Positions 24,160-61,862 of a DNA stretch of 64,000 nucleotides are shown here, in pieces (position 1 is the stretch's first letter; each line of letters starts with the position of its first letter). Source of the stretch: Eretmocerus hayati (Eukaryota > Arthropoda > Insecta > Hymenoptera > Aphelinidae); contig CM056744.1 of the NCBI GenBank assembly GCA_029851415.1, positions 56,011,797 through 56,075,796 on the forward strand. The letters run 5' to 3'. A program made the position numbers and the translations under genes. A model generated the notes under the pieces. That model saw nothing but the letters and a program-made list of their open reading frames with translations. It was not told where the DNA came from and made no database searches.

Positions 24160-24596
24160 TGTTACGATTTGAGGGTCCTTGAAATCTGTTTATCCGCTGA
24201 GTTATAAGACTCAGAAGATGGGTGAAGGTACAGCCAATGACAAACAAACGGTGGTTCAGCTTTATTGATGTTTATTCAGAGTAAGTATAAAACCCGAGAG
24301 AGAGACTAACTCGTAACTCTAAGACTCTAGAAATATCGACGAGGCCACCAATGGCTGCTTATACTCGTGATGTTAACTCTGTGACGATTCGTGTACGACT
24401 GTGAATCTAGAAGCTCCTTCTGGCAGAATCCCTCCGTATTTATACTCTTTCCCAGGCTGAGACTTCTCTTCATTCTATTTCAAGAGAGGGGTTGAACAGG
24501 TTAGAGCTTGCAGCAGCTCGAGGCTTGTGCCTGCCTCTCGCTCGAGGTCGGTCAACTTCATGCGGTAGCCGTTACGGCCAGGTATGAGCCGTAACA
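24160..24596 (-). repeat. 3' LTR of the giant element
   Basis: 437 bases, ending in TGTTACG/CGTAACA inverted termini. By eye it matches the 5' LTR base for base. On the minus strand it holds a TATAAATA box and two AATAAA signals in the order expected for U3-R-U5. Confidence 0.95.
24261..24276 (-). terminator. Two AATAAA polyadenylation signals in 3' LTR
   Basis: AATAAA on the minus strand at 24271-24276 and 24261-24266. They are well placed to end the genomic and env transcripts within the 3' LTR. Confidence 0.65.
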
Positions 24597-25078
24597 CGTC
24601 CGTTTGGTAGCCTTGTTGCTCTCCGGAGCAACCGACGTAAGCTATGATAAAGTAATATCTTGAATCTTTATGTTCTCATCTAATTTTACTAATTCAAAAA
24701 AAATTTTTTTTTTGACATTTTGCTGATTTGTGGAGCTTATATTTTAATTCCTTCATTATGATTGGGTAATCATGGTCTTCTCTTTCCAATAGTACATATT
24801 ATATAGATTGTTCGAGTGTTTCTTGATTCTTCTTGCATATATGTATCTTTAAGATCTAGTCTTGGTATCTATATCTCATATTAGGTATTTTCCATTATCA
24901 GGTTTCATGGTTCAATTATGATAAGATAGGATTATTGAGGTCTCTCTCTCGTCTAGTCTCAATATTTGTCGGTGCAGCGGTGGTCCATCTAGAGATCAGC
25001 GTATTCATTGACCTCCATTTGAGCTTCGCTGTCCAGAGGATAATGCCTTTTGACTCGCACCAGGGGTTCTGGCATTGG
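24597..25078 (-). other. env 3' region and 3' LTR junction
   Basis: Non-coding. I see no typical purine-rich polypurine tract next to the LTR. Instead, the 17 bases touching the LTR (24597-24613) are CGTCCGTTTGGTAGCCT on the plus strand, followed by a TTGCTC/GAGCAA hairpin. Near copies of this motif occur at 48612 and 48790 inside the element. Confidence 0.5.
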
Positions 25079-27082
25079 TTACTCCTCTGGTTTCGCTGTT
25101 ACTGCGAGTTGATCTAGGTTCGGGAATCCAATTCCCCTCCCACTCGGCTGGACCGCATATGTAATCGGTTGAATGTTGATGGTCTCCGGCTGGCGAGACC
25201 ATGCTACTCCGGGATGTTCTATGTCCTGATCTCCCGATGATGTCTCTGAAACTTGTCTTCCAGTGATTAGCCAAAGGGACCCCCCCAGGCAAAGGACTCT
25301 CCAAATTATAAGTATTATTACTGCGATGATGATTAAGGTCGTAGCGGAATACGTAAGCGTGTTCTGAAGTAATTCAAATTTCCCCGATATCAATCTGAGT
25401 TGACTCATTCCCCGCGCTTTGTTCATAATCTCTTTTAATTCTTCTCCTCTGTCGAGTGCATTCAGGGATGATCTCCCGCGCAATTTAATATGTGGTGCTA
25501 ATTCTGTTTCATCGATCGAGTCTTTCGAGAATCCTGCCATTTTTCTTCCCATCACTGATGATAGATCTAGTTCTGCCTCGTCAAAGATATTAATTTGCGA
25601 TGATGTAGTGATCTGTCGCGAGGCTATTAGTTTTACGTTTTCAGTTCGTGCTGAACAGCCCGACGGTAGGTTAACGATGCCCATGCCTTCCAGCGTGAAT
25701 CTTTTCTCATTATCTTGTGCGCAATTAACGTATAAATTATCGGCTCCCATGGATGAGTAAATCCATGTATTTTCTTTCTCCAATCTAGTCCAGAATGTTT
25801 CCTGAAACCTGGCGACCTTCAATTCACAGTTTGAAAAGTTTTTCATGTCCTTGTGAGCTCCAAGTTTGATTTCGCACGGGGAATTCTCATCAATAATCCG
25901 GACTGGTTCATTACTTTCACAAATGAATGCCCTGTGTAACCATTTACATTTACTTAGACTGTCCATCGTCATTGGAATATAGCTCTCTGCGTCTATATTT
26001 AACGCGGCGTATTCTGTGCTTGGCCATAGGTAGATGAAAATCGAGCTGTTGGTCTGTTTCACAGGGACCGCTATAGCTTTGAATAGGTCATACTCGGTGT
26101 AGTCCAAGAGCGGAATTTTTACGTAGTATATGAGTTGTGGGTACGAAAATACTATCGATAGATCTATTATCTTCATCAAGTCTACTAGTGGGTCGGTTCC
26201 GTTGACTTTTGGGAATTTAGCATCGTTTACTGTTTGTTCTGCCATCATTCTTGTATTCTCAAACAGAGAGGGTGGCATGAAGCGCGGGTGTGCCATACCC
26301 TGAGCTGCGAATAGTAATGCGTCTGTCAAAATTTCGGTATCTATTTCATGTTGCAGTACGCTTTCGCTGAGCGGTTCGAAGAATACTTCCATGTCCCTCT
26401 CTTCATTAATGCGTGTTTGTTCATCTTTTAGTATGGTTGTCATTGCCTCGAGTTCGTCCAGCTCTTTGTGAACGTTTCCGAACTGTTTGTAAACTATTTC
26501 GGTTTGATTAGCCATGAGCCCTGCTAATTGGCTGGTGTCGTTAGCTGTGACTTGAATCAGTTGTTTCAGCTCTATTTCTGAATCTTCGTCTAAAGTTCCG
26601 AATAAATATTTGTCGATTTTCCCGATAATTGGAAACCAAGATCTCTTTGCTCGTATTTGTGGAGTGAGGGGTTCAGGACCCCTGAGCATTTCTAGTATCT
26701 TGCCCGCATTATTCTCCGTATCTTGTATTCTATTTCTTAATAGCTGAATCGGTTTTTCTAATGGGCATGGATTATTGTGGGCGTCTGATTGCTGTATCAA
26801 ATTACATCTAGCTCTGAATGCCTTCCAAGTGGTATTAAGTATCTTCCCTCTGGAGAAATAAGATTCTAAATCCACTCTATGTATCATTTTCCATGAAATT
26901 CTAGTTGTGTATAGGCGGTCCAATTTTTCCATGACTAATCCCGGGTTATGATGTATCGAATGCAATGTCAGCTGTTCTTCCCCGGATCTCACAGCTCTGT
27001 GAACCAAAAAAATATTTCTTACAGTTTTAGTTTTGCATTTCAATTTTCTAGGGGAGAGTCGGACAGAACTCAAGACTTGCAT
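25079..27082 (-). CDS. env: Envelope glycoprotein, F-type (errantivirus-like)
   Basis: A 667-residue frame related to the fusion proteins of insect errantiviruses and baculoviruses, which mediate membrane fusion. A furin-type RAKR site at about residues 140-144 is followed by the fusion-peptide region and the FGTLDED box typical of the family. A hydrophobic segment near residues 577-600 (TTLIIIAVIILIIW) is the membrane anchor, with a cytoplasmic tail of about 65 residues. There is no obvious signal peptide at the N-terminus. An acceptor-like CTCTCCCCTAG lies near residue 12 of the frame, so the start is probably supplied by splicing from upstream. Unlike known errantiviruses, env is separated from pol by about 25 kb. 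No internal stops are visible. Confidence 0.85.
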   Translation of the reverse strand: MQVLSSVRLSPRKLKCKTKTVRNIFLVHRAVRSGEEQLTLHSIHHNPGLVMEKLDRLYTTRISWKMIHRVDLESYFSRGKILNTTWKAFRARCNLIQQSDAHNNPCPLEKPIQLLRNRIQDTENNAGKILEMLRGPEPLTPQIRAKRSWFPIIGKIDKYLFGTLDEDSEIELKQLIQVTANDTSQLAGLMANQTEIVYKQFGNVHKELDELEAMTTILKDEQTRINEERDMEVFFEPLSESVLQHEIDTEILTDALLFAAQGMAHPRFMPPSLFENTRMMAEQTVNDAKFPKVNGTDPLVDLMKIIDLSIVFSYPQLIYYVKIPLLDYTEYDLFKAIAVPVKQTNSSIFIYLWPSTEYAALNIDAESYIPMTMDSLSKCKWLHRAFICESNEPVRIIDENSPCEIKLGAHKDMKNFSNCELKVARFQETFWTRLEKENTWIYSSMGADNLYVNCAQDNEKRFTLEGMGIVNLPSGCSARTENVKLIASRQITTSSQINIFDEAELDLSSVMGRKMAGFSKDSIDETELAPHIKLRGRSSLNALDRGEELKEIMNKARGMSQLRLISGKFELLQNTLTYSATTLIIIAVIILIIWRVLCLGGSLWLITGRQVSETSSGDQDIEHPGVAWSRQPETINIQPITYAVQPSGRGIGFPNLDQLAVTAKPEE

Positions 27083-31843: not shown

Positions 31844-34056
31844 ATGGCTGATTTTGGATCAGAGGAACTACCTCCGCTTAAGGGGCATAAGTTTTTCATT
31901 GTCACACTGCATTTGACAGTTATGCTGATCAATGCGGTCAATTATTTGCATAAGGGCGGTGTCGCCGTCACGAAGTTTTGGGTCCATGTTGTGAGTATAC
32001 TTCAACTTCATCTTGCCCTCCCCTCTTCCATACATTCCAAGTTTGAAATTCTTCATAGTATAAGCGCGCGTCTCCAAATCTCAGGCTCCCTCTGCAATAC
32101 AAACCCTATATGCGCCTTCTAGTGTCTACCTCAAGCCTCGCGTGCAATGGTGTTAACGTTGCGGTGAGAAATCTGGTGGAGAGCTACTCATAATCTGGTG
32201 GAGAGCCACTCGTAATCTGGTGGAGAGCACTGCCGTGCTAGCATATGGGCTTCATAAGCATACAAGCGAGGCCTGACTCCGCGCGCGTGGTGTTGTATCT
32301 TTCGTTGCTGTGAAGCGGGTTTTTGGTGGGCTCAGGTCTATTCGATAGTATATTCCGGGTTTAAAGAATAGGTCGACCTCAGGCTGACAGAAGCGTTTGT
32401 TCTTTTCTCTTTCATGGGGTTGCTTGCATTGTTTTTGAACATTACTTTCCGCGACGATACACTGTCGGAAAGTAAAAATTTATAACTTGGTCACATTCCG
32501 TCAAAACCTTTCTCGTGGCTTTTTCATATTGCCAAATTTAACTCGAATGACCATCCTGTTAATCTGGGTTTTCCATCTTTCTGCCGATTTCAATTATCCA
32601 GTTTTCGATCTGCATTCGTTCTATTTAATTTATTTCGTTAACTAAATTCTCGTTGCAGCCACAGAGTTTCAACGTGGTTTGCTTCTCCTAAGAGTTCTCT
32701 TTCTGCTTATTCTTCCACGTATCCTCTGTGTAAAAGAATGTTAGGTGTTTCTTGAGAAACATTTTTTTTTTTCCACATTCCCTGTTCTAAATTTTGTCTC
32801 GTATTTTTCAGTTCAAAGATGGCCCATCAATCCTGACTTCCGCCTGTGCTGCCGCATTCCTTGATCGGCACCTAGTTCGACCCCAAAGTTTACAAATGCA
32901 ACGACTGGAAAGACTACATCGTGGTATTTATTACCTCCACCAGCGGGATGCTACTGCTGGTGAAATCCCTTCAAGCGATGAATTCCTCGCTTCCACCAGT
33001 TTTTTAGAGTGTACTTCGGACAACGCAAGTGAAGTTGAGCGAGAGTACGAGAGAATCCTAGAACATCTTGCTTCGGGACCGGAGGCATTCTACGGACTCA
33101 ATCTTGACCCTAAGGGCCCCACAGCAAGACTACGGCTCAAGGACTTTCCATTGTATGTTCGGTCGGCGCTCAACCCGCACTTAGGTAGAAGCCCGGGAAT
33201 TAACGTTCCCAGTCTCTATGCAGGCCTGAAAGGGAGTTGCAGTGCTATGCATTGTGAAGATGGAGATCTGGATAGTGGAAATATCCATCGGTATGGCGCT
33301 CCCAAGTATTGGTTGTTCGTCCATCCGCACTACAACCACCATCTTCGTCAGCGTGTCCTTGAGTCGCTTCGCCGAAGTAACAAGATACATCTAACGAAGG
33401 GGTGGCTCCCCGGCTGCGGTACTCCCCTTCACCATAAACGATTGCTCCTCGCGCCAAGTCTCCTTCGTGAATGGGGTATTCCTTTCGAAATCTTCGTTCA
33501 ACAGCCTGGGCAATTCATCTACATTCGCGATGGAGTTTTCCATCAAGTAGTAAACGCGGGGCCCTGCATCGCTGAGGCTGTGAATATGGGGAGTGCTCTA
33601 TGGTCCGGCGGAGCGCATAAATATAAAACCTGTGCCTGCAAGTCTTCCGGCAAGTCAGTGTTCATTTCAGGGAGCCCTGATGTGGCATTGAATGTCACCC
33701 CGGCGCATTTGAAGAGGCACGTGTGCGATTTCGCGGGTTGTGACGCTTACTATTTCAATCTCCAAGACCTTGCTGCTCATAAGCGTGCTCATACCCGAAT
33801 GGTGCATACTTGTGCCATTTGTCAGAAATCTTTTGCGCGGCTTTCCAACCTTCGAAGGCACTCTAAGGTCCATCTGCCTTCCGAGGAGGCTCGTGTTCCG
33901 TGTTCCCTATGCAAGAGCTTTGTAGTGAAGGAGTACGTGCGGATTCACCGGCTGACTTGTCAAGGAGGTCCCTTAACGTGTCCCCATTGCAGTAAAAACT
34001 TCCTTCGGCGTGAGGGCTTGACGCTCCATGTTTCAAAGTGTTCATCCCGGCGCTGA
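31844..34056 (+). CDS. JmjC-domain protein with C-terminal C2H2 zinc fingers (cargo)
   Basis: Two coding exons, 31844-31990 and 32812-34056, join in phase 0 across an 821-bp GT-AG intron to give 463 residues. A 92-bp 5'UTR intron (31714-31805) precedes the ATG (context AACCATGG). The central part matches the JmjC fold of KDM4/KDM5-type histone demethylases: the Fe(II) ligands appear as MHCED (His196, Glu198) and GVFHQVVN (His293), with YGAPKYW and AEAVNM boxes around them. It has no JmjN domain, PHD or Tudor that I can recognise. From residue 352 on there are at least three C2H2 fingers. A nuclear 2-oxoglutarate-dependent lysine demethylase guided to DNA by its fingers is the natural reading; substrate is unknown. 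It lies antisense to gag-pol, in GC-richer DNA than its surroundings, with intact active-site residues. Confidence 0.85.
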
Positions 34057-39186: not shown

Positions 39187-39376
39187 GCTGCTTTAATTCG
39201 TTCTCAATTTTCCTTAACAATCCGTTTCACTTGTTTTTTCTTTCCTTGATTCCAGGTACTTTCGAAAATTTCTGCCACTTCGAAGCCTCACGCCTGAATG
39301 CTTGGCGATTGCGTTCTGATCTCGTTCTGGCAAAATATGCCACTAGACTGTTCTCAAGTACCCTGGTGTCTTATAA
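39187..39376. promoter_or_regulatory. Probable bidirectional promoter / 5' exon region
   Basis: The interval separates the divergent 197-residue gene and the zinc-ribbon gene. A GATTCCAG acceptor near 39256 probably opens a 5' exon of the plus-strand gene. I see no TATA box. Confidence 0.35.
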
Positions 39377-48432: not shown

Positions 48433-48469
<37 letters not shown>

Positions 48470-49437: not shown

Positions 49438-51519
49438 ATGTCTCAATCACCCAATCGAGGTTCACCAACTCGGCGACTTCCATCTAATCGTCGCCGAAGT
49501 ACTCCTGATGCATCGTCGTTCGAGTACCGGGCCGCTTCCCATCGTCGCCCGCACGAGATGTATCCTGGTGGCTCACGGCCGGGTCGCCGATCTTTTTCCC
49601 GTGGGATTCCTCGATCTCCCAGGGCTGTGGGCCGACATCGTGTGAATTCTGCTGCCATGGATCATCCGCGCTTTGACCGCTCTGGCGCGGCTCGAGCCGT
49701 TTCCCGTTCTGGCACTGCTATGCGAGGTGGGCTCGCTCGGCGTGTTTTCCTGCCATGTAAGAATCATGTGCGATGCCGTTGTCGACCCTATCATTTGGGT
49801 GCCACGTTGGGGTCTCGACGATCACCCAGCTCCAGCTACCGCTCTGAACAGGTGAGTTCTTTGATATAAATAATTTCGTCTGACTTTCGTATTGCTTGTG
49901 TGCGTCTCGTTTCAGCGCTGGCGTCACTTCAGAGATCGTCGTGCGTTGGTTTCTCGTACTCCTGATCCTCCTATTATCCTTCATAATCTTCCAACATCGG
50001 AGCCTAACGAGGGTTCTAGTTTGTCTCCAGTGTCTGTTAACTTGGATCCAATTGATGAATCTCTTTTATTCCCGATGGACCTTCCTGATCCGATCATTGA
50101 TTTTGACGTTGAAAATTTGCTATCGCTTTTCGATCCTCTTCTATCAACTTATTCTAATTTGATTGGCGACGGCTCACTGCTCACCCCTTCTGAACCTATT
50201 TTTCTGCCCCTCGCTCCTCCTTCAGATACACTGATCTCGGCTGCTGATTCCACTTCTCGACTTGATGACTCCGTAATTCCTGATCTACCTTTATCTCCTC
50301 TTCTTCCCGCGTCTGACGAGTTTCCTACGGAATTGCCATTTGATGAGCTATGGTGGGTGCCTGGATTCCCATTTGTATTAATTGTTGAGCTTGTTTGTAT
50401 AATTCTTTTCTTCTCTTCTCTTCTCTGCAGATTCAACGTTTTTGGACCACCGAGCCAGCTCGTGCTCCTCGCCTCTTCGCAATCCCGGCTCTTGTGGATC
50501 CTTCGACGCGCAGTGATAACGACATGCGCCGGACTGTGCATTCCCTTTCATCAGTCCACCGACTTCGAGATGTGATCGTGACCATAATGAATCTCACTGG
50601 TGCGCAAGTCGCTGCGGCTTTCCAATCCAATCATTTCCTTCGCCACGCATCGGGACCCAATGCTGGATCAGGGAGTCTGGCCCCTTTGTGCCCTGCTTTA
50701 TCGGGACTTGATGTGCTCGTGAGCGTCATCGATAGCTTGCTGGTGATTGAAAACGCCAAGGTTGAGGATGTTTTAGAATGGATCGAGGGCGAGCTACCCG
50801 ACTTGCGTGAACGCAGAAATCTTAAGCTCGGCCAATTTTATGCAGATAGAAAATTCCTCCAGCGTCAGGCTAGACTGGCTGAACAACGTGCCATGCGTGC
50901 TCGTACACCGAGGTCAGCATCTCCCGATTATCATTTGCGAGAGCTTTTCGGCGAGGATGTGGAGCCGCAATCTAATGACGTATGCGGTATATATGATACA
51001 TCAGTACCGGTGAGTGACGCTGTTGCTGATCTTTCTATTCCAACATCTCCTGATGAAGTTGCTAATATTGACCAGCGTGGTCTTCTACCGATTGTGAAGC
51101 GTTTGACTATACATCGTGACACTGGTGACCGGAATGGGGTTTTCCTCCATCAAGGAATCTCTGCTCGTGATGCAATCAATGAAATATTCACTTGCAAAAT
51201 TTGCTATGATCTCATTCATTCTGATTATTATCCGTGCATTAATGGTCATCCCTTGTGCAAGAAGTGTCGGGAGTCGCAACGCGGTTCCAGATGCCCGTTT
51301 TGCAGGGGTGAATTCTTACGTCACGAGAACATATTTCTTCGAGAGTTGGCTGCTAAGGTATCTTTTGCTTGTCGCAATGATTGGCTGGGTTGCCTGGAGT
51401 TTCCCTTGGCTTCTGATTGGCCCAAGCATGTCAAAGAGTGTCGTTTCCAACCTAAGCCAATATCGCGCCGCGATCGTGCTATGATTGATGCTCGCGCCGA
51501 ATCTTTTCTATGGTTCTAA
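49438..51519 (+). CDS. SIAH-like RING protein 2 (cargo)
   Basis: Exons 49438-49851, 49916-50356 and 50431-51519, joined in phase 0, give 647 residues. The first intron (64 bp) has strong sites; the second (74 bp) has a weak donor, so its left edge could be a few codons off. The N-terminus is Arg/Ser/Pro-rich (residues 1-130), the second exon acidic and Leu/Pro-rich. The C-terminus has a RING with CKICYD, NGHPLCKKC and CPFCR, then a SIAH-type FACRNDWLGC...HVKEC. As in RING protein 1 the TRAF-like domain is missing and a short ERxA-type tail ends the protein. The two genes share the RING exon and 5'UTR intron layout but almost nothing in the N-terminal half. An AATAAA lies at 51615-51620. Nuclear or cytoplasmic E3 activity is inferred. 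Confidence 0.78.
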
Positions 51520-51955: not shown

Positions 51956-54900
51956 TCAATGCTCCTCTTGACCTCGATTGAGGCTATCATCTTCACTTGA
52001 GTGACAGTTTTTAAGCTTGTCAATGTGCACAACCCGTGTTTTATCGCCTTTCTGAATACGCGCATTATTGCTCTCGTAATCAACTTCCAGTATTTCACAT
52101 GGTCCTACGTAATGTTTATCCCCTTTACCATGTCGAGGTTCTTTGAGCAAGTAAACAGTTTCCCCTTCTCTAAAAAATTTAGGGTTGATTTTTTGGTCCT
52201 TGTAAAATTTGGATTTGAATTTACTTCTGAGCTGGCTCATAGCTGAAAGTGTCCTGAGTTCCGTGAACGCTTTTGTCATGTCCGCGAGGTATTCATCGTA
52301 AGTTATCAGCTGATCACGAGGTGGGAACGATGACGGCATTCTTGCTCTTCGACCAAAGACGAGTTCGTGTGGAGAATATCCCGAATTTTCGCGTGTCATT
52401 GTATTCAGCGAGTGCTGTGCCTGTGGTAGAAGTTCGTCCCACTCCGTATGTTCATTCAGATACATAGCTAGATACTCATTCAAGGTATGATGCATACGTT
52501 CGATCGATCCGTTGGATTGCGGGTGATAGCTAGAGCAAAGAAGCCTATTAATTCGGAAAATTCGTGCAAATTCCTCAAATACCTTCCCCATGAAGTGTGA
52601 TCCCTGGTCTGTGAGAATTGATACCGGTAATCCATAATAACAGATGAAGTGTTCCATCAGAACCTTTGCGACCGTGACTGCCGTAGCTTCTGTCGTGGGT
52701 GTTAGCACACAAAATTTACTAAAGCAGTCCTGTATTGTAAGGATGTAAATATTTCCACGTTTCGTCGGATTTTTCGGACCCACGAAATCCATTGATATCT
52801 TCTCGAATGGTATCATGGGTGTATCAGTTATAACCATTGGCATTTTTGTCTTGACCCGTACTAACTTATCCGTTTGGCATGTCGCGCAACCTCTCACGAA
52901 TATTCTCACGTCTGCCTGCATATTTGGCCAGTAGAATTCGCTCGCTAATCGATCGTATGTTTTTGTGATGCCCTTGTGACCCCCGATCGAAGACTCATGA
53001 TATTCCTTAATAATTCGATACCGCTCTTGTTCAGGTGGGACCGGTAGGTTATTCTTGTACAATACTATAGATATCGTTAGTTTTCTGAATATTCGATTGC
53101 ATTGCTCTATGAAGTATCCCCATTTGTTCTTATTCAGCATTGCCAAATCTCTGATAATTCCTATTGATTTTATCCCTTTACTGATTACGAGTTCCCGTAA
53201 AAGTTTCAAAACTGTCGTAATGTCTGGTTTCAAGGCTTCCGAATAAGTTGTGTTTTTAATGACTAAACCAAATAATTTCACCTGTCTATACTCTGATACA
53301 ATTATTTCGCCGACCGACCGCCCTTGACTTAGCAGCTCGTCTTGCCCGAGATATCTTCTTTCTATCAGTGAATTCAGTACTTCCGATTCTGTACACATGT
53401 TCGCTGGTATGGTGTACACAAGATTATCTATGTGTGAAAATGGGTGATCGTTTACCAATTTAACACCCGTAAAGACGTCTATTTCCTCTTCGTTTACCAC
53501 CCAGGATGGTATTTCTTGTGGTCCCCGCGCTTCCGCTGTCAGGTAGCGTGTCATTGCATTATCCCTCTTATTCAATCTATTTTCCCGTATCGTCTCTTGT
53601 TCGTCTATGATTTGCCCGTCTCCGGGTGGTCCATCGTCTGATGGTTGTAAGACCTCATTTTCTTTAAGTATAGGTTCATCAACCTCCATGTCCACGGCAA
53701 AGAATTCCGCTGGTAGAGATTCGTCTGCAATTCCAGCGTGCTTACGGATACCCATATTGATCAATGGTGTATAGTGTTTACCTCTCAAATGGACATGAAT
53801 AAACTCATTCTGGTCGTGTGCCCTGAAATGGGCGTATCGAAACCTGTCATCACATTGAAGATGCACACAGATATTTACATTGAACTCTCGTGAGAATATG
53901 AATACGGTATCTCCATCTCCATATGCCGTCTGTGACGTTAATATTGCTACTGCTGCTGCAGGGTCTCCACAAAATGGAAGATGTCTACTGTTTAGTAAAA
54001 CCTGACGAAGTTGGAGAGCTGACATTTCCCAACCAAAAATCTTAATAAGTGTGTAGAACAGACAGTTTCCTGGTGGTTTCGAATTGATTTTCGTGTCATG
54101 AAAGAACGCATAACTTGGCTGCGCGCACTCGTCATGTTCCTCGTAGTTTTGGAACCTGACAATCGAAGAATTTGTTTGATCCTCTGACTTCGAGAACGTT
54201 CCAGTGTAGTCCCAAGATAAGTCTTGGACTTGTGGGTCTTTGACTTTGGAATCGGTCATAGATGTTTCTGGTGTGGCTGGGGGCCTTGGTGTGTGTTCCA
54301 AATCCGAGACGCGTGATTCCGGAAGGGGTGTAAGATTATCTGCCATATGCCTCTCATGAATATTGTTAGGCTCCACAGGTGTCATCTTTGCATGTTCTGG
54401 CTCAGGATTCTCTTCATTCGCGCTTACCGCTGCTGTTTCCGACAAGGGTTGCATCTGTTCATCAGTTCGGTTATGCATCGGACTTTCATGGGATGGATCG
54501 TTTTCAAACTGATCTTTCATTGTTATATCTCCTTGAAAATCTTCTAGTTGAGTAAGATTGACAACTGGTTGATATTCCGGTAATTCGAATTGGTTTCGGA
54601 TATCCTTGTAGGGGGCTTTGGTTCCTTCTGCTTCAGGTTGCGTTGTGGGTAATGGGATAGTTCCTATCTCTGATCTTCTCATGTCGTTTATATTCACTCT
54701 TGAAGTGCTGCTTCTCGCTTGAGAGTTTGTCCAAACAAGTATCTGTACTCCGGTGTTCCTCCGATCTTCAAATCGCTCAACTTTCCACGTGAGATGTCGA
54801 TCTCTGCTTGTCTCCTCATCGTGTTCGGACCGTGTTTCTACCCTTTGGTTTTCGTTGGTCGAGTTTTCACAATCGGAATTCTGTTCAGGGAGATTGACAT

Positions 54901-57829
54901 ATTGCGTCGAATCAGGGTTATTGAAACCCATGTTGATTGGCTCGATTGTCTTTTCCGAATCTTCGGTGGTTACTTGATTTTGTTCTTTCATTGATGTACC
55001 CAGACTCTCGTTTGAATTTGAATTTTCGTATTGTGTATTCCCGAATATCTGTATATTCCTCTGAGAAAGGGGTTTTTCACTCTCTGCTATAGGTCTCTTG
55101 ATAGTTGTGTCTTTGTTTGGTGTGCTCGTAATTTGAATTTCTGCTCTGATGTCTTGTTCGTTTCTCAATCGTTTCAAAGAGTCCATGTCATTTTGAGCTT
55201 GGCTTAATATCGGTTCGGCGCCCGGATGATCATCGATTTCTCTCAACATTGTACACAATGGAAAATTTTGTCCCGTACGTCCCCTTGACCCTTTGGGTCG
55301 CATCATGCGTTCTGCATTGGCCGCTCCACTCCATTCTTCGTCTTCATCTTCATCCTCATCATCGTCTGAGAAAGGGTCACTCGAGTCACTATCATAGTGG
55401 GCTTTCTTCTTTTGTGATGGATTACCTGAATTTTCTGTAGGATTCGACTCGTCCCATAATATTCTATTCTCGTCGTTCGCTTCATCCCTTCTTCGTTTGT
55501 GACTTCGAGTCTCTACGACCAGCACCCTCGCACTGGCGAGCTTCGCTGCTTCTTCTTGTTCTTGCTTTTCTGCTAACTGATACAATTCCACCGTTGGGCG
55601 CTCTGGGTTTTCTTCGCCTTCATTCAAAACAATATTCCTTGAAAGGGCATCAGCATGGGCATTCTTATCAGCCCTTCTATATACGATTTCGAAGTCTAGG
55701 CCTCTCAATGCGGCCTTTAGCCTATTAAATCTCAAATCTGGCTTCTTTGTGTTGTGATAGTGCTTCAAGGGTTCATGATCTGTCACTACTAGAAACTTTT
55801 TCCCGTATAAAAAATGATGGAATTGCTCTGTACCGAATACTACGGCCAAGAGCTCTTTCTCATAAATACTCCAGTAATACTCGCTACCCCTGAGGGCTCT
55901 TGATGCATACGCACAGGGCTGATCTTGCCCTAAGGTACCAATACTGAGAATTGCTGCCACCCCATAATTACTGGCATCTGTACTAAGAATCAGAGAGTCT
56001 GATTGTGTTGGACATGCGAGGACCGGCTCTTGGCATAGTGCTTCGCGCAATTTCTCGAAGGCCTTTTGCTGGTCTTCCCCCCATTCGAATTTCACATCCT
56101 TCCGTAATAGTTTGTTGAGTGGATATGCTATGTCTGCAAAGCCTTTGACAAACCGGCGGTAGTACGAGGCGAGGCCCAGGAATTGTTTGACTTTTTTTGC
56201 TGTCGTGGGTGTTGGATATTTGCGTACTGCTTCTATCTTTTTGGGGTCCATACGGATCTTACCATTCCCTGCTATGTGACCTAAAATACTCGCTTCTCGC
56301 TGGAGGTACTGACATTTTGAAGGTTCTACGGTCATGTTTGCTTCATCAAGTCGTCTCAGGACTTCTCTAAAGAGTTTCCCATGGCTTTGCAGATCCGGGG
56401 CTGTTATGATTATATCATCGAGATACACGTATACTCCAGAGGACCCCAGTAAAGAGCCTAGGACCTTTTCAATAGCTCGTTCAAAAGTGGCTGGACTATT
56501 ACGGAGTCCCATCGCCATCCTGGACCACATGAAGAGCCCGGAGCTCGAGCTAAATGAGGTCCTAAATTTCGAGTCTTCCGACATGGGAATTTGCCAAAAT
56601 CCCTGGCGCAAATCGATTGCCGTTATATATTTCGCGTTTGCAACGCTTTCTATGATGTCTGTAGTGATTGGAATAGGGTAGCTATCGGCTACTGTGATTG
56701 CATTCAATTGGCGAAAATCTACCACCATGCGCCATCGCACTTTCCCGTTTGCATCTGGTTTCTTCTTCACAATCCACATCGGGCTTGAATATGGAGAATC
56801 CGATTTTTCAATTATTCCTGCTTCTAATAACTCTTTGATCTGTCTTTCCATCTCTTCCCTGATCTCTTGGGGGTATCTGTATCTTCTCACTTTTATGGGT
56901 TTGTCGCTGGTTAATACAATTTTGTGTGATGCTACGTGCGTAGCTTTAAGTTTTTCCCCTGGTAGTCCGAATACCCCTGGTCTTTCTCGAATGAGTTCCT
57001 TGACATGCTCGATCTCCTCTTCATTCAACCCTTCCAATGTTTTAGGATCAATTCTTTCGAACACTTTCGTGGCTCGGTCCTTTGTTTCATCGGCTTCAGT
57101 TTTTCGTACCTCGATATACTCTTCAGCGTGTTTCCCATTCTGTTCCCTGTTTTGGGGGTCGAATGTCTCTCCCAACTGCACGATCCCGAGATCCTCGAAG
57201 TCGACTTCTGCGGTCTCTGATTCGATATCTGATTCGTCCAAATATGCGGGGTATTCATACGATTCTTCCCCGGTATTCTCTTCTGTGACGTCTTGAAATG
57301 GAACTACTGACTCTGAATCTTGAAAATTGCTCAACTCCTTTTTCCCTGTACTCGTCATCTGGGCGTATTTCACTTGTAGAGTGTCAGTTGGGGTCTCGGG
57401 CCCTTCCTTTCTGATAAATGGGATTATCAAATTCGCAAATTGAAGGCACTTTGCTTTAGCGTCTAATACTCCCCCGTGTTTTTCAAACTCGCGCCATCCC
57501 AGAAGTCCATCGGTGTGTATAGCAAAGGTGTCCGATACTATATGCACTTCGCAGTCTAATCCATCAAGATTCATATTAATCCTTCCAAGCGTTAAGCATT
57601 CTCCTGCCGTGACCCCACTAATAGATATGATATAATTCTCGTCTATAGGCGTCCCTTCTTTCAGGCAGCGTTTTTTCAGAAGCGTAACATCCGCTCCCGT
57701 GTCGGCGTAAAATTTACAAGGTCCGTTCCTAAATTTCTCGCATTTCAATTCGACTATTGGATGTTTTCTTTCACTCGATTCGCATAAACGTATAGAAACG
57801 TGACGTCTTGGTATTTTATTATCCTTCAA
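51956..57829 (-). CDS. pol: Pol polyprotein: protease, RT, RNase H, OTU-like domain, integrase
   Basis: The 1957-residue frame lacks an initiating ATG at its head, and begins in the -1 frame inside the gag stop (AATTGA), so frameshifting is likely. Domains in order: aspartic protease with DTGA (residues 43-46); Gypsy RT with YLDD (about 469-472); RNase H with STDAS (about 615). A polar linker of some 450 residues, rich in Asp, Glu and Asn, follows. Next is an OTU-like cysteine protease domain with GNCLFYTL (Cys about 1256) and KHYTPL (His about 1352). The integrase has an HHCC zinc motif, catalytic MDFVG, TDQGSHF and a SIERMH Glu, and a VGPCEI box like the GPY/F module. Usual Gypsy Pol is about 1000-1200 residues, so the linker and OTU region account for the extra length. 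No stops interrupt it. Confidence 0.93.
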   Translation of the reverse strand: MKDNKIPRRHVSIRLCESSERKHPIVELKCEKFRNGPCKFYADTGADVTLLKKRCLKEGTPIDENYIISISGVTAGECLTLGRINMNLDGLDCEVHIVSDTFAIHTDGLLGWREFEKHGGVLDAKAKCLQFANLIIPFIRKEGPETPTDTLQVKYAQMTSTGKKELSNFQDSESVVPFQDVTEENTGEESYEYPAYLDESDIESETAEVDFEDLGIVQLGETFDPQNREQNGKHAEEYIEVRKTEADETKDRATKVFERIDPKTLEGLNEEEIEHVKELIRERPGVFGLPGEKLKATHVASHKIVLTSDKPIKVRRYRYPQEIREEMERQIKELLEAGIIEKSDSPYSSPMWIVKKKPDANGKVRWRMVVDFRQLNAITVADSYPIPITTDIIESVANAKYITAIDLRQGFWQIPMSEDSKFRTSFSSSSGLFMWSRMAMGLRNSPATFERAIEKVLGSLLGSSGVYVYLDDIIITAPDLQSHGKLFREVLRRLDEANMTVEPSKCQYLQREASILGHIAGNGKIRMDPKKIEAVRKYPTPTTAKKVKQFLGLASYYRRFVKGFADIAYPLNKLLRKDVKFEWGEDQQKAFEKLREALCQEPVLACPTQSDSLILSTDASNYGVAAILSIGTLGQDQPCAYASRALRGSEYYWSIYEKELLAVVFGTEQFHHFLYGKKFLVVTDHEPLKHYHNTKKPDLRFNRLKAALRGLDFEIVYRRADKNAHADALSRNIVLNEGEENPERPTVELYQLAEKQEQEEAAKLASARVLVVETRSHKRRRDEANDENRILWDESNPTENSGNPSQKKKAHYDSDSSDPFSDDDEDEDEDEEWSGAANAERMMRPKGSRGRTGQNFPLCTMLREIDDHPGAEPILSQAQNDMDSLKRLRNEQDIRAEIQITSTPNKDTTIKRPIAESEKPLSQRNIQIFGNTQYENSNSNESLGTSMKEQNQVTTEDSEKTIEPINMGFNNPDSTQYVNLPEQNSDCENSTNENQRVETRSEHDEETSRDRHLTWKVERFEDRRNTGVQILVWTNSQARSSTSRVNINDMRRSEIGTIPLPTTQPEAEGTKAPYKDIRNQFELPEYQPVVNLTQLEDFQGDITMKDQFENDPSHESPMHNRTDEQMQPLSETAAVSANEENPEPEHAKMTPVEPNNIHERHMADNLTPLPESRVSDLEHTPRPPATPETSMTDSKVKDPQVQDLSWDYTGTFSKSEDQTNSSIVRFQNYEEHDECAQPSYAFFHDTKINSKPPGNCLFYTLIKIFGWEMSALQLRQVLLNSRHLPFCGDPAAAVAILTSQTAYGDGDTVFIFSREFNVNICVHLQCDDRFRYAHFRAHDQNEFIHVHLRGKHYTPLINMGIRKHAGIADESLPAEFFAVDMEVDEPILKENEVLQPSDDGPPGDGQIIDEQETIRENRLNKRDNAMTRYLTAEARGPQEIPSWVVNEEEIDVFTGVKLVNDHPFSHIDNLVYTIPANMCTESEVLNSLIERRYLGQDELLSQGRSVGEIIVSEYRQVKLFGLVIKNTTYSEALKPDITTVLKLLRELVISKGIKSIGIIRDLAMLNKNKWGYFIEQCNRIFRKLTISIVLYKNNLPVPPEQERYRIIKEYHESSIGGHKGITKTYDRLASEFYWPNMQADVRIFVRGCATCQTDKLVRVKTKMPMVITDTPMIPFEKISMDFVGPKNPTKRGNIYILTIQDCFSKFCVLTPTTEATAVTVAKVLMEHFICYYGLPVSILTDQGSHFMGKVFEEFARIFRINRLLCSSYHPQSNGSIERMHHTLNEYLAMYLNEHTEWDELLPQAQHSLNTMTRENSGYSPHELVFGRRARMPSSFPPRDQLITYDEYLADMTKAFTELRTLSAMSQLRSKFKSKFYKDQKINPKFFREGETVYLLKEPRHGKGDKHYVGPCEILEVDYESNNARIQKGDKTRVVHIDKLKNCHSSEDDSLNRGQEEH

Positions 57830-60800
57830 TTGTTGCTGCTCGACGTCTGGGATTGGCGTCGAGCATCCTGGGAGTTTAAATGATTGTTTTGTTCGTTATT
57901 GATCCCCTGATTTGATGGCTGATTCTCTGACCGCGGCACCGAAGGGCCCCTATCATCAATTCTTGTATCATATCCATCGTTTCGTCCGCGAGTATCATTC
58001 CTGTAATTATTAGTCTGCCGGTAACTTCTACTCCCACCTTGATAATTCAGATAATTAGATCGATTGTTTCCAGAGTAATCCTGGCGCCCCCCGTTATTGA
58101 AACCTCGATTATAATTTCGATCCCTGCTGTTGACCCTATTATCACTATTATTGCGATTATTAGTATATCGATATCCATTATTATTGTAGCGAGGATAATT
58201 TCGATTCTCGTTCCGGTTATCAAATTCATAGTCACGTCTACTTCCAGAGTTGCTGTAATAGTTCCGATCTCTGTTATTGTAATTTCTCGGATAGCGTCTA
58301 TCATCCTGAAATTCTTCAGCTCGTGAACCGTCTCGACGTGAGTATTGATTCGGCGATCCATTGAATTGGTTATTAAGGCTCGGGCGTTCTTGGGTTGGAA
58401 AACGAGATCCGCTTGAGCTTCGAGCATTTCGTGGCAAATCTCGTGGGCGCTCTATCTGATTTTTTACGACTAAACCGGAATCAACGGCTCCTTTGAGGGA
58501 GCGGCACTCGCCTATGTCGTGACCCGAAACGCGGCAGTAATTGCAAAATTTCGAATCCCGCTGTTTTTTTGAACATTCTCTCTCAAAATGCCCCTTTGCT
58601 CGACAATATCGGCATTCATCGGAGGCTGTAGCTAGTCTAATCGTTGCTGTTTCCTGAGTCGACGCGTTACCCGTGCGTGTCTCCCGTAGTTTCTTTTCTA
58701 CAAAAGCTTCGATGAGTGGCATCAGTCCGTCCACGTTGCCCGAAGGTCTCTCCATTGAAAACAATGCGCGAGCGCTCGTTTTATTCTCGAAACTCACGGC
58801 CTCTGAAATGGCCTCTCGTAACGTTTTGGGATTCGTCGATCGGACCTGATGTTGAAGTGCTCCCGCTAAGCCAAACATGAACTGTTGCAGGGCCTCTGCA
58901 TCTGCATTGTATTTGTATGTCTTGCGTTCCCATTCTTCTAATTTCTGATCAGAGTCATAAACGTTTAGCAGGCGATTATGCAGCGTCTGTACTCGTAAGC
59001 CGTAGTCCCCTGCTCCTTCTCCTGGTCTCTGCTGAATCAATTTCAATTCGGCTAATACGCGGTCCGCACCGCCAACTCCACTATATTGCGTTGTCATATC
59101 GGCTAACAGTCGTTCTACTGAGCTATATTGAGTAAGTCGGGCTATGTACCCTTCAGCTGCTCGGCCTTTAAGTTTACTCGCGAGTGCAGAGAGAATCCAG
59201 GGTTCGGCTTCCGAGCCATATTCTTCGACTATGTACCGAACCGATTTGCAAAATAATGCTAGCATATCTGGATTACCATCGTACGACATAATCTGATTCA
59301 ATGCTTGATGTAACGGAAGGCGGAATTTTGATCCGTATTTTCGATCGCTACCGTATGCATCAACTACGTTTCGCGCCTTGCACTGGCGTATTTGCACGTC
59401 CGTGTTTGTTCCAAACTTTTTAACAGTATCATTTCCGCCTGACGGGAGCTCCGTCGCCTGTGTGTCGGGGAAGTCGTCATCAGTCTCGTAGTACTCCTCT
59501 GGTTCTTGAGGAGCTGGTTCATGATTCGAGCAACATGGCTTATTGATTCTATTATTGATTCGACTCGCGTTGGCTGCGTTGTTACATTTTGGGCCGTTCG
59601 CATTGGCTTCTGCATGACCTACATGGGTGTGACAAGTGTGCGTCGGCTGATTGTCTTGGAGTCGCTGTCCAATAATACGTCGTCCAATAGTCTCCCGCGA
59701 ACCGATTTGACTCGAATGATCGGAATTATATCCCTTCCGTCCCTGAAATTGGTCGTCCTTCCGATTTTCTTGATGGACAGTTGCACGCATGCCCTCATTT
59801 TGATTAGCTCGTGCTGAGTTTTGCTCGGCAAAGATCCGACTCTGGCTGTTTGCTTGAGAATCCATACTTCTTAGATCCTGTCTTTGAAGTCGGGTGAAAT
59901 TGGGTTCTTCACAGAACTGAGCATCCTGATCGGTGGATCGGTGGCTACGATTCTGATCATTAGTCCTCAATTCTATCGCATTCAAGTTCCGAGGGAGGGG
60001 GTCCGTCTGTTGGACATTTTCAGGTTGTCCTTTCCATCCGAAAGGGCGGAAAGCCAGAGTGTGGCGCTCTTCTTCCATACCTTGCGGTCGGTATTGAGAG
60101 CTCCACGATTGATTCTTCTCCCAAGGCAGTCCTTCGCCCATCAGAGGGCGGCAGCCAAGATCCTGATCTTTGAATTGTACTCGCGTCATGTCTCTGCCCG
60201 CGCCGTCCGTAGTTCGGTTATTGGACCAAGAAGCTCCCCCACTAACCGCATTCCCCGTATTCATCGGGTGGTCTGTCCATATGTCAGGGCTACCATCGAA
60301 TGACAGCCGTCTTCGGACCGGTTTGACTCTTTCGGTGGTCTGATCGTCGTAACGCGAGGACTCTGCATTCATCTGCGACGTTTTGAATTGTTCATATTCT
60401 TCAAAAAAGACGTTAGACGCAGGCATGGGTGTTTTGGGTCGTGTCCCCGTTGCAATTTGCTGTTTTTCCAAGTGGAGTTTCAATGATTCTAAGAGCGTTA
60501 CTTCTTTTTCCGAAAGAAACTCCGGGAGGGTAGAAAGAGTTCGGCTCAGATCTCGTATCGCCAGTTCCATATGCATTCCGCCGGGGTTTTCGAGTCCCAG
60601 ATCGGCGGACATGAGCGCAAAGTAAGCAGTGCGCGCTCTCTCGTCGCCTTTCTCCATCCCGTCATAATAGCGTAATTTCAGCTGAGAGATATCGAGAATT
60701 TCATGTTCTTCTGGTTCAGATTCGCCCCCCGTAGCTCCCTGCTGGTCGGGATTCAGTTCCTCAGCAACGCTGCTCGTTACGTTTTCGGCAGATACCGGAG

Positions 60801-60831
60801 GTCGGTCATCATTCTTACGGCTTTTCGCCAT
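57826..60831 (-). CDS. gag: Gag polyprotein of the giant element
   Basis: A 1001-residue structural polyprotein expected to form the capsid that packages element RNA. I start it at the ATG at 60831 (context ACAATGG, protein MAKSRKND...) because the open frame upstream begins at a GTG inside a splice-donor sequence and has no other Met. The first 500 residues are polar and poorly conserved. A Gypsy-type capsid domain follows around residues 510-720 (RLPLHQALNQIMSYDG and onward). Two CCHC zinc knuckles, CRYCRAKGHFEREC and CNYCRVSGHDIGEC, then bind RNA around residues 780-820. The tail is rich in Arg, Asn, Tyr and Ser. It overlaps pol by four bases with pol in the -1 frame. It is much longer than usual insect Gypsy Gag (about 400-500 residues). 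Confidence 0.92.
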   Translation of the reverse strand: MAKSRKNDDRPPVSAENVTSSVAEELNPDQQGATGGESEPEEHEILDISQLKLRYYDGMEKGDERARTAYFALMSADLGLENPGGMHMELAIRDLSRTLSTLPEFLSEKEVTLLESLKLHLEKQQIATGTRPKTPMPASNVFFEEYEQFKTSQMNAESSRYDDQTTERVKPVRRRLSFDGSPDIWTDHPMNTGNAVSGGASWSNNRTTDGAGRDMTRVQFKDQDLGCRPLMGEGLPWEKNQSWSSQYRPQGMEEERHTLAFRPFGWKGQPENVQQTDPLPRNLNAIELRTNDQNRSHRSTDQDAQFCEEPNFTRLQRQDLRSMDSQANSQSRIFAEQNSARANQNEGMRATVHQENRKDDQFQGRKGYNSDHSSQIGSRETIGRRIIGQRLQDNQPTHTCHTHVGHAEANANGPKCNNAANASRINNRINKPCCSNHEPAPQEPEEYYETDDDFPDTQATELPSGGNDTVKKFGTNTDVQIRQCKARNVVDAYGSDRKYGSKFRLPLHQALNQIMSYDGNPDMLALFCKSVRYIVEEYGSEAEPWILSALASKLKGRAAEGYIARLTQYSSVERLLADMTTQYSGVGGADRVLAELKLIQQRPGEGAGDYGLRVQTLHNRLLNVYDSDQKLEEWERKTYKYNADAEALQQFMFGLAGALQHQVRSTNPKTLREAISEAVSFENKTSARALFSMERPSGNVDGLMPLIEAFVEKKLRETRTGNASTQETATIRLATASDECRYCRAKGHFERECSKKQRDSKFCNYCRVSGHDIGECRSLKGAVDSGLVVKNQIERPRDLPRNARSSSGSRFPTQERPSLNNQFNGSPNQYSRRDGSRAEEFQDDRRYPRNYNNRDRNYYSNSGSRRDYEFDNRNENRNYPRYNNNGYRYTNNRNNSDNRVNSRDRNYNRGFNNGGRQDYSGNNRSNYLNYQGGSRSYRQTNNYRNDTRGRNDGYDTRIDDRGPSVPRSENQPSNQGINNEQNNHLNSQDARRQSQTSSSNN

Positions 60832-61401
60832 TGTGTCGCGCTCGCTTATGAATCTATTCAACTGTATGGCGGCTAGTTTCTCACGCGCTAGTCCCAGAAT
60901 GCACAGGCGAGAGACAGGTGACAGATGACGCGTGAATTCAAAGTTCTCAATGTTGGTTGAGCGGATACTCACAAATTATCAACTTACGTGATGTAATTTT
61001 CTATAAAAACAGACACTCGATTTGCTATTCGCAAGGGAATGAGTCGACAGTACGTTATTGTTTATAAACCTAGTTTCTGTAGAATCTAGAGTCAGGATCG
61101 ATTCAAATGATAGCGATTTACTATTCGCGTGATAAGTTTGAGGTAACTATTGAACGAAGAAAAGCTTCAATCCATACGCTAGTAATTCCGGAAAAGAGTC
61201 CTTGCCTCGCGACTCTCCCCACGAGGGACGTATAGTTGGGTGTAATAAAAACTACTCACCCTGTAGCTGCGAGAATGAAAATCAGGAAGATCTGCATGAA
61301 CATCCTCTCGGATCCTTCCGTGGAGTCTGTAGTCTGCTGCTGTACGATGTATAAAAACGCGGCACGGTTGACGCGATATAATTATCTGTAACCTTCAAAC
61401 A
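60832..61401 (-). other. 5' leader of the giant element
   Basis: Non-coding leader between PBS and gag ATG. Two good splice donors occur in the sense direction, GTAAGT (starting at 60987) and GTGAGT (starting at 60972); either could be used to make a spliced env transcript. A packaging signal probably lies here but cannot be recognised by sequence. Confidence 0.5.
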
Positions 61402-61421
61402 GATTCCCGGCCGATGCACCA
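61402..61421 (-). promoter_or_regulatory. Primer-binding site for tRNA-Gly(GCC)
   Basis: On the minus strand the 20 bases starting TGGTGCATCGGCC lie four bases inside the 5' LTR. On the plus strand they read as the 3' end of animal tRNA-Gly(GCC), including the CCA tail. This identifies the primer for minus-strand DNA synthesis. Insect errantiviruses described so far mostly use Lys, Ser or Leu tRNAs, so Gly is a distinguishing trait. Confidence 0.85.
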
Positions 61422-61425
61422 GTTT

Positions 61426-61862
61426 TGTTACGATTTGAGGGTCCTTGAAATCTGTTTATCCGCTGAGTTATAAGACTCAGAAGATGGGTGAAGGTACAGC
61501 CAATGACAAACAAACGGTGGTTCAGCTTTATTGATGTTTATTCAGAGTAAGTATAAAACCCGAGAGAGAGACTAACTCGTAACTCTAAGACTCTAGAAAT
61601 ATCGACGAGGCCACCAATGGCTGCTTATACTCGTGATGTTAACTCTGTGACGATTCGTGTACGACTGTGAATCTAGAAGCTCCTTCTGGCAGAATCCCTC
61701 CGTATTTATACTCTTTCCCAGGCTGAGACTTCTCTTCATTCTATTTCAAGAGAGGGGTTGAACAGGTTAGAGCTTGCAGCAGCTCGAGGCTTGTGCCTGC
61801 CTCTCGCTCGAGGTCGGTCAACTTCATGCGGTAGCCGTTACGGCCAGGTATGAGCCGTAACA
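61426..61862 (-). repeat. 5' LTR of the giant element
   Basis: 437 bases, same termini and order of signals as the other copy, offset by exactly 37266 bases. It would drive the genomic transcript toward gag at its inner side. Confidence 0.95.
61703..61710 (-). promoter_or_regulatory. TATA box in 5' LTR
   Basis: TATAAATA on the minus strand. The same box is at 24437-24444 in the other LTR. It lies about 165 bases before the poly(A) signals, giving a plausible U3/R layout. Confidence 0.6.

What the first reader, a model, noticed from the sequence alone, without database searches (positions are those of the whole stretch)
24160..61862. A 37.7-kb LTR retroelement that inserted as one unit
Matching 437-bp LTRs, a 4-bp TTGT duplication, a tRNA-Gly PBS and exact restoration of the Helitron frame show that everything between the LTRs belongs to one locus insertion. 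Gypsy/errantivirus elements are normally 5-9 kb; the few giant LTR elements known to me (Ogre in plants, Burro in planarians) are reported with few or no cellular-type genes. This one has intact gag, pol and env and about 25 kb of cargo. I see no difference between the LTRs, so it moved very recently at this size.
Basis: partly seen in the sequence, partly recalled or inferred. Interest (0 to 1): 0.97.

Follow-up and report, generated by a model that had tools for sequence, protein, structure and literature searches.

The report
Giant insect retrovirus-like element with cargo
A parasitoid wasp genome carries endogenous retrovirus-like elements of mostly 32-38 kb that move as single units and carry a shared set of extra genes, one of them resembling a gene that large viruses use against their hosts, which is well beyond the usual size and gene content of such elements.

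Summary
Window 24160-61862 is one 37,703-bp Ty3/Gypsy-type LTR element in the wasp Eretmocerus hayati: two identical 437-bp LTRs, TSD TTGT, open gag, pol and Baculo_F env frames, and about 25 kb of cargo between env and pol. The empty site is uninterrupted in nine other Helitron copies at 94-95% identity. Seven other loci have the same LTRs, matches to the same cargo, and their own TSDs. In four older copies 14-16 LTR substitutions are shared by both LTRs against 2-5 private ones, the signature of reverse transcription through the whole unit. Most cargo genes evolve at dN/dS about 0.1-0.3, like gag-pol-env; RING1 and p49 do not. A second family, about 50% identical in pol, has six insertions with six TSDs; five (31.7-33.0 kb) carry JmjC and PPP1R15 in the window's arrangement, and one (25.6 kb) lacks both. 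So the cargo is old and selected, but not needed for every move. Correction: planarian Burro elements also carry cellular-type domains. New variant of a known kind, with the longest internal region (36.8 kb) I found for an LTR element.

The parts
24156..24159 (.). target-site duplication TTGT (left)
   Evidence: empty site
24160..24596 (-). 3' LTR, 437 bp
   Evidence: identical to the other LTR
24597..24640 (-). sequence next to the 3' LTR: palindrome TTGCTCCGGAGAGCAA, then AACGGACG; no polypurine tract
   Evidence: shared with family 2; predicted hairpin, z -1.68, 12 of 200 shuffles fold as well
25079..27082 (-). env, 667 aa, Baculo_F type; RAKR site at residues 144-147 and a hydrophobic stretch at 571-591
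   Evidence: Pfam PF12259 E 8e-44; motifs; dN/dS 0.18 against copy E
31844..31990 (+). JmjC gene exon 1
   Evidence: donor GTGAGT; NCBI protein P0005 runs across the same exon junction, with one residue different before it and another end downstream
32812..34056 (+). JmjC gene exon 2 (JmjC domain + C2H2 zinc fingers)
   Evidence: Pfam JmjC E 1.2e-21; KDM4-like chains in PDB; dN/dS 0.09 against copy E
38593..39192 (-). p38, 199 aa, unknown
   Evidence: 50% identical homologue in family 2; dN/dS 0.27 and one stop against copy E; only 3 and 2 changes, all non-silent, against B and C
39445..40029 (+). p39, 194-aa frame ending in two CxxC pairs
   Evidence: dN/dS 0.27 against E, no change against B and C
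40653..41537 (+). p40, 294-aa frame ending in two CxxC pairs
   Evidence: dN/dS 0.19 (B, C) and 0.31 (E)
44107..44724 (-). p44, 205 aa, paralogue of the C-terminal part of the PPP1R15-like protein
   Evidence: 30% identity E 5e-30; dN/dS 0.13-0.14 against B and C
44930..45838 (-). PPP1R15-like protein, 302 aa
   Evidence: Pfam PP1c_bdg E 4.4e-6, above its cut-off; PPP1R15A E 1.3e-9 and DP71L E 0.0015 in PDB; 11 of 11 full-length copies at 95-100% identity without stops
47124..48308 (+). RING1 last exon (Sina-type RING); acceptor by eye
   Evidence: Pfam E 9.5e-10; acceptor; dN/dS 1.3-1.6 with 2 stops in the window's frame in each copy compared
49874..50575 (+). p49 frame, perhaps an upstream exon of RING2
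   Evidence: dN/dS 0.40-1.02, one stop against B and C
50431..51519 (+). RING2 last exon (Sina-type RING); acceptor by eye
   Evidence: Pfam E 2.8e-6, just under its cut-off; 35% identical to RING1; dN/dS 0.16, one stop against B and C
51956..57895 (-). pol, 1979 aa: protease motif, RT, RNase H, long stretch with OTU-like motif and macro-like part, integrase
   Evidence: Pfam RT, RNase H, integrase; DTGA seen; Ty3 chain best in PDB; part of the stretch 41% identical in P0014; dN/dS 0.15 against E
57826..60975 (-). gag, 1049 aa stop to stop, two CCHC knuckles; no Pfam family
   Evidence: dN/dS 0.18 against E
61402..61421 (-). primer-binding site, tRNA-Gly type (tRNA match recalled)
   Evidence: same in family 2
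61426..61862 (-). 5' LTR, 437 bp
61863..61866 (.). target-site duplication TTGT (right)

Best explanation
This is an endogenous, env-bearing Ty3/Gypsy (Metaviridae-like) retroelement with a 36.8-kb internal region. Shown: the whole 37.7 kb is one mobile unit bounded by LTRs and a 4-bp TSD; other loci hold the same unit with other TSDs; most cargo genes are under purifying selection; JmjC, p38 and the PPP1R15-like gene are shared in order and orientation with a second family about 50% identical in pol. Inferred: one full-length minus-strand RNA is made from the 5' LTR, copied by the element's own RT from a tRNA-Gly primer, and integrated by its integrase. Sense cargo (p38, PPP1R15-like, p44, env) comes from spliced or internal RNAs. 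Antisense cargo (JmjC, p39, p40, RINGs) comes from promoters of its own and can keep its introns because the genomic RNA is the other strand. The cargo probably counters host defence: PPP1R15-like recruits PP1 to remove phosphate from eIF2alpha and keep translation going; the RING and OTU-like parts act on ubiquitin; the macro-like part on ADP-ribose; JmjC-zinc finger on chromatin silencing.
For: Identical LTRs and TSD. Empty site at nine other Helitron copies. Eight full-size LTR pairs of family 1 with their own TSDs, 8 of 8 with JmjC, PPP1R15, pol and env matches inside. LTR substitutions shared by both LTRs of a copy against private ones: E 15/2, F 14/5, G 14/5, J 16/2; the young copies have few: B 1/0, C 1/0, D 0/1. 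A-rich genomic strand: plus-strand AT skew -0.21 in cargo, -0.22 in gag-pol, 0.00 in the left 20 kb. Mosaic identity along 44-51 kb. dN/dS 0.09-0.31 against E, B or C for JmjC, p38, p39, p40, p44, PPP1R15-like and RING2. Family 2: six insertions with six TSDs, five with the cargo. PPP1R15 and JmjC within 25 kb at 36 of 62 loci, all 36 in one arrangement.
Against: No polypurine tract next to the 3' LTR, so plus-strand priming is unexplained. No RNA, protein or particle data. OTU rests on a recalled motif and macro on E 0.05. RING1 has dN/dS 1.3-1.6 and p49 up to 1.02; gag against B and C gives 0.96 and 0.72, on 13 and 7 changes. A 25.6-kb family-2 copy without JmjC and PPP1R15 and one sister family without them show that the cargo is not needed for movement. 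The linkage counts include close copies, so they are not independent events.
Confidence: 0.88

Rival explanations
1. A normal-sized Gypsy element into which unrelated host DNA or other transposons inserted later; the cargo is a passenger at this one locus.
For: Nested insertions do occur in this family: copy C holds a 34-kb insert with its own 1.2-kb LTR pair.
Against: The same cargo sits at the same places in other copies with other TSDs and part of it in family 2; most cargo frames are under selection.
Confidence: 0.02
2. Assembly error joining two LTRs.
For: LTRs are identical, which can mislead an assembler.
Against: A different TSD at each copy and a matching empty site are not produced by misjoins.
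Confidence: 0.01
3. The unit moves as DNA (integrase acting on a DNA copy, or replication as a large DNA virus) and not through a 37-kb RNA.
For: Reverse-transcriptase processivity and packaging are discussed as size limits (PMC6431247, passages); no polypurine tract found; genes on both strands as in DNA viruses.
Against: Both LTRs of four older copies share 14-16 substitutions against 2-5 private, the PBS is kept in both families, pol is under selection, and the A-rich genomic strand spans the cargo.
Confidence: 0.08
4. A non-autonomous large derivative: cargo trapped between LTRs and moved by another element's proteins.
For: Large retrotransposon derivatives of that kind exist (PMC6431247, passage).
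Against: gag, pol and env frames are open and selected in the same unit.
Confidence: 0.02

Closest known systems
Burro (giant Gypsy-like LTR elements of planarians; PMC6431247, passages read)
   Same: Gypsy-type pol, env-like region, cellular-type domains including RING and apoptosis or ubiquitin motifs, some accessory ORFs; total over 30 kb.
   Different: Burro's internal region is up to 25 kb, with many of the extra domains and the env-like region inside a 4,873-aa ORF1 polyprotein. Here the internal region is 36.8 kb, env is a separate gene near the 3' LTR, and most cargo is separate genes on both strands between pol and env.
Errantiviruses / Metaviridae (ICTV profile PMC7879559, whole text read)
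   Same: gag, pol, env order, LTRs, PBS, Ty3-like RT and integrase.
   Different: Internal region 3 to >15 kb in the profile; no cargo described; a polypurine tract of about ten A/G, which is not found here.
Retand elements of plants (PMC11963269, abstract read)
   Same: Long pol-3'LTR region with antisense genes.
   Different: That region is 2.9-6.6 kb, mostly with an antisense TRP28 protein; the abstract mentions no env and no virus-like accessory set.
Foamy-like fish endogenous retroviruses, up to 17 kb (PMC6431247, passage)
   Same: Size increase through accessory ORFs.
   Different: About half the size; other family.
Terminons (Penelope-like, up to 40 kb; PMC10175614 and PMC6431247, passages)
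   Same: Giant retroelements.
   Different: Not LTR elements; different RT class.

Membership tests
Metaviridae (Ty3/Gypsy) | two LTRs and a short target-site duplication | tested here: met
Metaviridae (Ty3/Gypsy) | pol with protease, RT, RNase H, integrase, Ty3-like | tested here: met
   Pfam for RT, RNase H, integrase; protease by the DTGA motif alone; best chain Ty3 Gag-Pol, E 1.1e-100
Metaviridae (Ty3/Gypsy) | gag with nucleocapsid zinc knuckles | tested here: met
   two CCHC at residues 788 and 811; no Pfam gag family matched
Metaviridae (Ty3/Gypsy) | tRNA primer-binding site | tested here: inconclusive
   sequence fits tRNA-Gly from recall and is kept in family 2; genome tRNA check not answered
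Metaviridae (Ty3/Gypsy) | polypurine tract of about ten A/G next to the 3' LTR | tested here: not met
   no such run in the 104 nt printed; a conserved palindrome is there instead
Metaviridae (Ty3/Gypsy) | internal region 3 to >15 kb | tested here: inconclusive
   36.8 kb here; the profile gives no upper limit
Errantivirus | env gene downstream of integrase | tested here: met
   Baculo_F env, but about 25 kb downstream
Errantivirus | RT within the errantivirus clade | not tested
   no reference set of Gypsy RTs at hand
Burro-like giants | extra domains inside one giant polyprotein | tested here: not met
   most cargo lies in separate frames on both strands; only the OTU-like and macro-like parts are inside pol
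PPP1R15 / GADD34-type PP1 regulators | PP1-binding and eIF2-binding C-terminal core | tested here: met
   by sequence: Pfam PF10488 above cut-off, PPP1R15A/B chains; activity not tested

The most novel reading that the evidence does not exclude
The wasp carries a previously undescribed lineage of giant retroviruses: several families of env-bearing elements, two of them measured here at about 32-38 kb, with a shared accessory set (PPP1R15-like, JmjC-zinc finger, p38, OTU-like and macro-like parts in pol; RINGs seen in family 1) like that of a large DNA virus, still spreading and perhaps infectious, and with the largest genomes known to be copied by reverse transcription between LTRs.
Probability: 0.45. 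Interest if true: 0.95.

Novelty: new variant of a known kind. Interest (0 to 1): 0.86.

Why it matters
In the papers I saw, the longest internal region of an LTR element is up to 25 kb (Burro, PMC6431247); this one is 36.8 kb, with several young insertions. It shows an RT-copied element holding a multi-gene accessory set on both strands over long evolution, as large DNA viruses do. It makes testable how a 37-kb RNA is made, packaged and copied, and whether such elements carry genes between insects.

Tried and rejected
Viral contigs gave no relative of pol in 2 scans. One protein search each for the PPP1R15-like protein, JmjC and the pol stretch gave 1, 12 and 1 hits. The p28 frame (28718-29335) was dropped as a gene: the copies compared have stops in it and no Pfam family matched. 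p39 and p40 looked like paralogues by eye, but the comparison was weak (E 0.026), so I do not claim it. Papers: all 10 searches used. None of the rows listed showed a giant LTR element in Eretmocerus or a PPP1R15-bearing retroelement; most searches matched more papers than were listed. Of the genome paper PMC13116730 I read the abstract and section 3.5, which report a recent LTR (mainly Gypsy) burst and mention no giant elements there. PMC8556966 was searched for Burro, giant and longest and gave nothing of use.

Rows dropped before counts: one search gave 89 rows; 26 that match only the C-terminal domain were left out, and 63 merged to 62 PPP1R15 loci. One search gave 146 rows; 37 second fragments at the same loci were left out, leaving 109; it scored 110 of 943 candidates. 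One search scored 99 of 972 JmjC candidates, merged to 95 loci. One search scored 66 of 1260 env candidates. So linkage counts are lower bounds and loci called without JmjC may hold one that was not scored.

Mended: one family-2 copy is 25.6 kb and lacks JmjC and PPP1R15 matches; the mosaic is less even than first written; 6 of 8 full-size copies, not 4, show a broken match; stops in cargo frames are now told.
Full report
HOST. The window is C4:56011797-56075796.

THE ELEMENT. The LTRs are identical over 437 bp and flanked by TTGT. The element lies on the minus strand: 5' LTR 61426-61862, PBS, gag, pol, cargo, env, 3' LTR 24160-24596. Pfam finds RT, RNase H and integrase in pol and Baculo_F in env; the best solved relative of pol is Ty3 Gag-Pol. 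Gag has two CCHC knuckles; env has an RAKR site and one strong hydrophobic stretch near the C-terminus. The element sits in a broken Helitron (Pfam Helitron_like_N and PIF1 in the flanking frames). Nine other places have the unbroken site at 94-95% identity over all 234 nt (which scored 40 of 61 candidates).

COPIES. One search scored 40 of 94 LTR candidates. All 40 were examined; pairs and TSDs were read by eye from the printed flanks. Sixteen form eight full-size pairs: the window (TTGT, 37.7 kb), B C2:58.90 Mb (CTTC, 38.5 kb), C C4:93.88 Mb (CTCC, 73.5 kb including a 34-kb insert with its own 1.2-kb LTR pair), D C1:105.91 Mb (ATAC, 52.4 kb), E C3:71.78 Mb (CCTG, 37.4 kb), F C2:80.45 Mb (AGTG, 34.2 kb), G C3:100.91 Mb (GTCTT, read as 5 bp, 36.3 kb) and J C1:116.5 Mb (GTCC, 132.9 kb, so with other DNA inside) (sizes). 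Four LTRs form two short pairs (TAAG, 19.4 kb; CTGT, 20.2 kb). Four are solo LTRs with a TSD (one of them in a run of C), one is a solo LTR with a one-mismatch TSD, and 15 had no partner in the scored set. All eight full-size pairs contain matches to JmjC, PPP1R15, pol and env; 6 of the 8 show a stop, a split or a shortened match in at least one of these four. B, C and E were read inside in full, D only in two small parts, F, G and J only through these matches. Of the short pairs I read only the 19.4-kb one: gag in part, little of pol, a RING fragment, the p28 region and env.

HOW IT MOVED. In four older copies both LTRs share substitutions that differ from the window: E 15 shared and 2 private, F 14 and 5, G 14 and 5, J 16 and 2; the short copies give 14 and 3, 19 and 4; the young ones have too few to tell (B 1 and 0, C 1 and 0, D 0 and 1). 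That is what one reverse-transcription event over the whole unit gives. The plus strand is T-rich, so the genomic RNA strand is A-rich, in the cargo (AT skew -0.207) as in gag-pol (-0.220), against 0.002 in the left 20 kb; the Helitron next door is -0.137 and the right flank -0.011. In 1-kb bins the window is 98-99.9% identical to B and C over most of its length, but 88-95% and partly unaligned at 30-32 kb, and 89-94% in the bins at 44, 45, 48, 49 and 50 kb, where E is 97-98% (E aligns only in part at 44 kb). At 46 kb B and C are closer (98.7-98.8% against 96.3%) and at 47 kb all three are alike. The window's 41.5-44.1 kb does not align to B, C or E, which share other sequence there. Silent divergence from E is 1.25 in JmjC and 0.88 in p40 but 0.09-0.17 in the PPP1R15-like gene, p38, p39, gag, pol and env. 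I take these as signs of recombination among lineages, as expected for two co-packaged RNAs; the packaging is inference.

CARGO. Genes with support: JmjC-zinc finger (two exons, + strand; NCBI protein P0005 runs across the same junction), p38, p39, p40, PPP1R15-like, its paralogue p44, RING1 and RING2. dN/dS is 0.09 (JmjC, against E), 0.20-0.27 (PPP1R15-like, B, C, E), 0.13-0.14 (p44, B, C), 0.16 (RING2, B, C, E), 0.19-0.31 (p40), and 0.27 (p38, p39, against E), next to gag 0.18, pol 0.15 and env 0.18 against E. Against that: RING1 gives 1.3-1.6 and p49 0.40-1.02; p38 has only non-silent changes against B and C (3 and 2); gag against B and C gives 0.96 and 0.72 on few changes; in the window's frame stops appear in p38 (E, one), RING2 and p49 (B and C, one each), RING1 (two in each) and pol (E, one), some perhaps through indels or wrong exon limits. 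All 11 full-length PPP1R15-like copies at 95-100% identity are without stops; a twelfth, partial, has one. The PPP1R15-like protein matches solved PPP1R15A (E 1.3e-9) and African swine fever DP71L (E 0.0015). DP71L recruits PP1 to eIF2alpha (PMC5346070, abstract in listing). In the JmjC alignment the window, P0002, P0003 and P0007 keep an HxE...H pattern that I recall as the iron ligands; P0006 and the family-2 protein do not, and the family-2 protein's JmjC score is below the Pfam cut-off.

POL STRETCH. About 890 residues lie between the RNase H and integrase matches. Part carries PGNCLF...H, which I recall as OTU-like (no Pfam match); part weakly matches OARD1/TARG1 macrodomains (E 0.05). 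A 1901-aa pol from an ENA contig of unknown organism shares residues 1240-1640 at 41%.

OTHER FAMILIES. C1:140943108-140974956 is a second family: LTRs identical (485-bp repeat, read as a 484-bp LTR), TSD CAGA by eye, same PBS; env 50%, JmjC 30%, p38 50%, PPP1R15 core 38%, pol 50% and gag 55-56%, in the window's order and strands. About 7.5 kb of it was not read; no RING match was found in the rest. Five further copies have LTR ends where predicted, with TSDs CTGA, TTAT, GTAT, CTGC and ATAT. Four of these are 31.7-33.0 kb and have JmjC and PPP1R15 matches; the fifth, at C4:90.25 Mb, is 25.6 kb with pol and env matches but neither JmjC nor PPP1R15. Across the genome 36 of 62 PPP1R15 loci have a scored JmjC within 25 kb, all 36 convergent in the same arrangement; random placement gives a mean of 0.41 and a maximum of 4 in 1000 trials. 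Of 109 pol-stretch loci, 39 have JmjC within 40 kb, 38 in the window's arrangement; random mean 1.35, maximum 6 in 300. These include close copies, so they are not independent. The other 70 pol loci have no scored JmjC that near; I looked at one, with a 1957-aa pol: about 7.8 kb between env and pol, and no JmjC, PPP1R15 or p38 match in the two pieces read; its LTRs were not found in them. So the accessory set was gained or lost within the lineage.

AGAINST. No polypurine tract; instead a palindrome TTGCTCCGGAGAGCAA and AACGGACG precede the 3' LTR in both families, with only a modest fold score (z -1.68). No expression data. Relatives outside this wasp are only two database proteins of unknown host (P0007, P0014). 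Whether the elements are infectious is open.

NOVELTY. Burro has an internal region up to 25 kb and cellular-type domains (PMC6431247, passages), so the kind is known. The present elements differ in size (36.8 kb), gene layout and a two-strand accessory set shared between families. My 10 paper searches showed no description of them, but most subscription journals are not in that library.

Noticed in passing
window 62347-62841 (-): A frame in the Helitron flank matches OTU (PF02338, E 8.5e-4, below its cut-off); the element's pol also has an OTU-like motif. Any link is untested.
   Followed up: no
G000:C4:93912256-93946393 (within L017-L020): Inside copy C sits a 34-kb insert with its own LTRs (about 1.2 kb, 99.6% identical) and an exact 3-kb repeat; perhaps another large or nested LTR element.
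   Followed up: partly
window 24597-24640: No polypurine tract, but a palindrome shared by families 1 and 2 next to the 3' LTR; how plus-strand DNA is primed is unexplained.
   Followed up: partly
window 5649-8006: Tandem array of a 142-bp unit, 16.5 copies, 94% matches.
   Followed up: partly
window 62880-62944: 31-nt inverted repeat, 87% complementary, 3 nt apart.
   Followed up: no
G000:C3:101.77-101.79 Mb (L063, L064): A sister family with a 1957-aa pol frame and no JmjC/PPP1R15 match in the two pieces read; one search lists further pol loci at about 51-56% identity that may belong to it.
   Followed up: partly
G000:C4:90249083-90274650: A 25.6-kb family-2 copy with its own TSD (ATAT), pol and env matches, but no JmjC or PPP1R15 match: a natural copy that moved with less cargo or lost it later.
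   Followed up: partly
P0007: A JmjC-zinc finger relative, 35% identical, from another dataset on a 2.6-kb contig keeps the HxE...H pattern.
   Followed up: no
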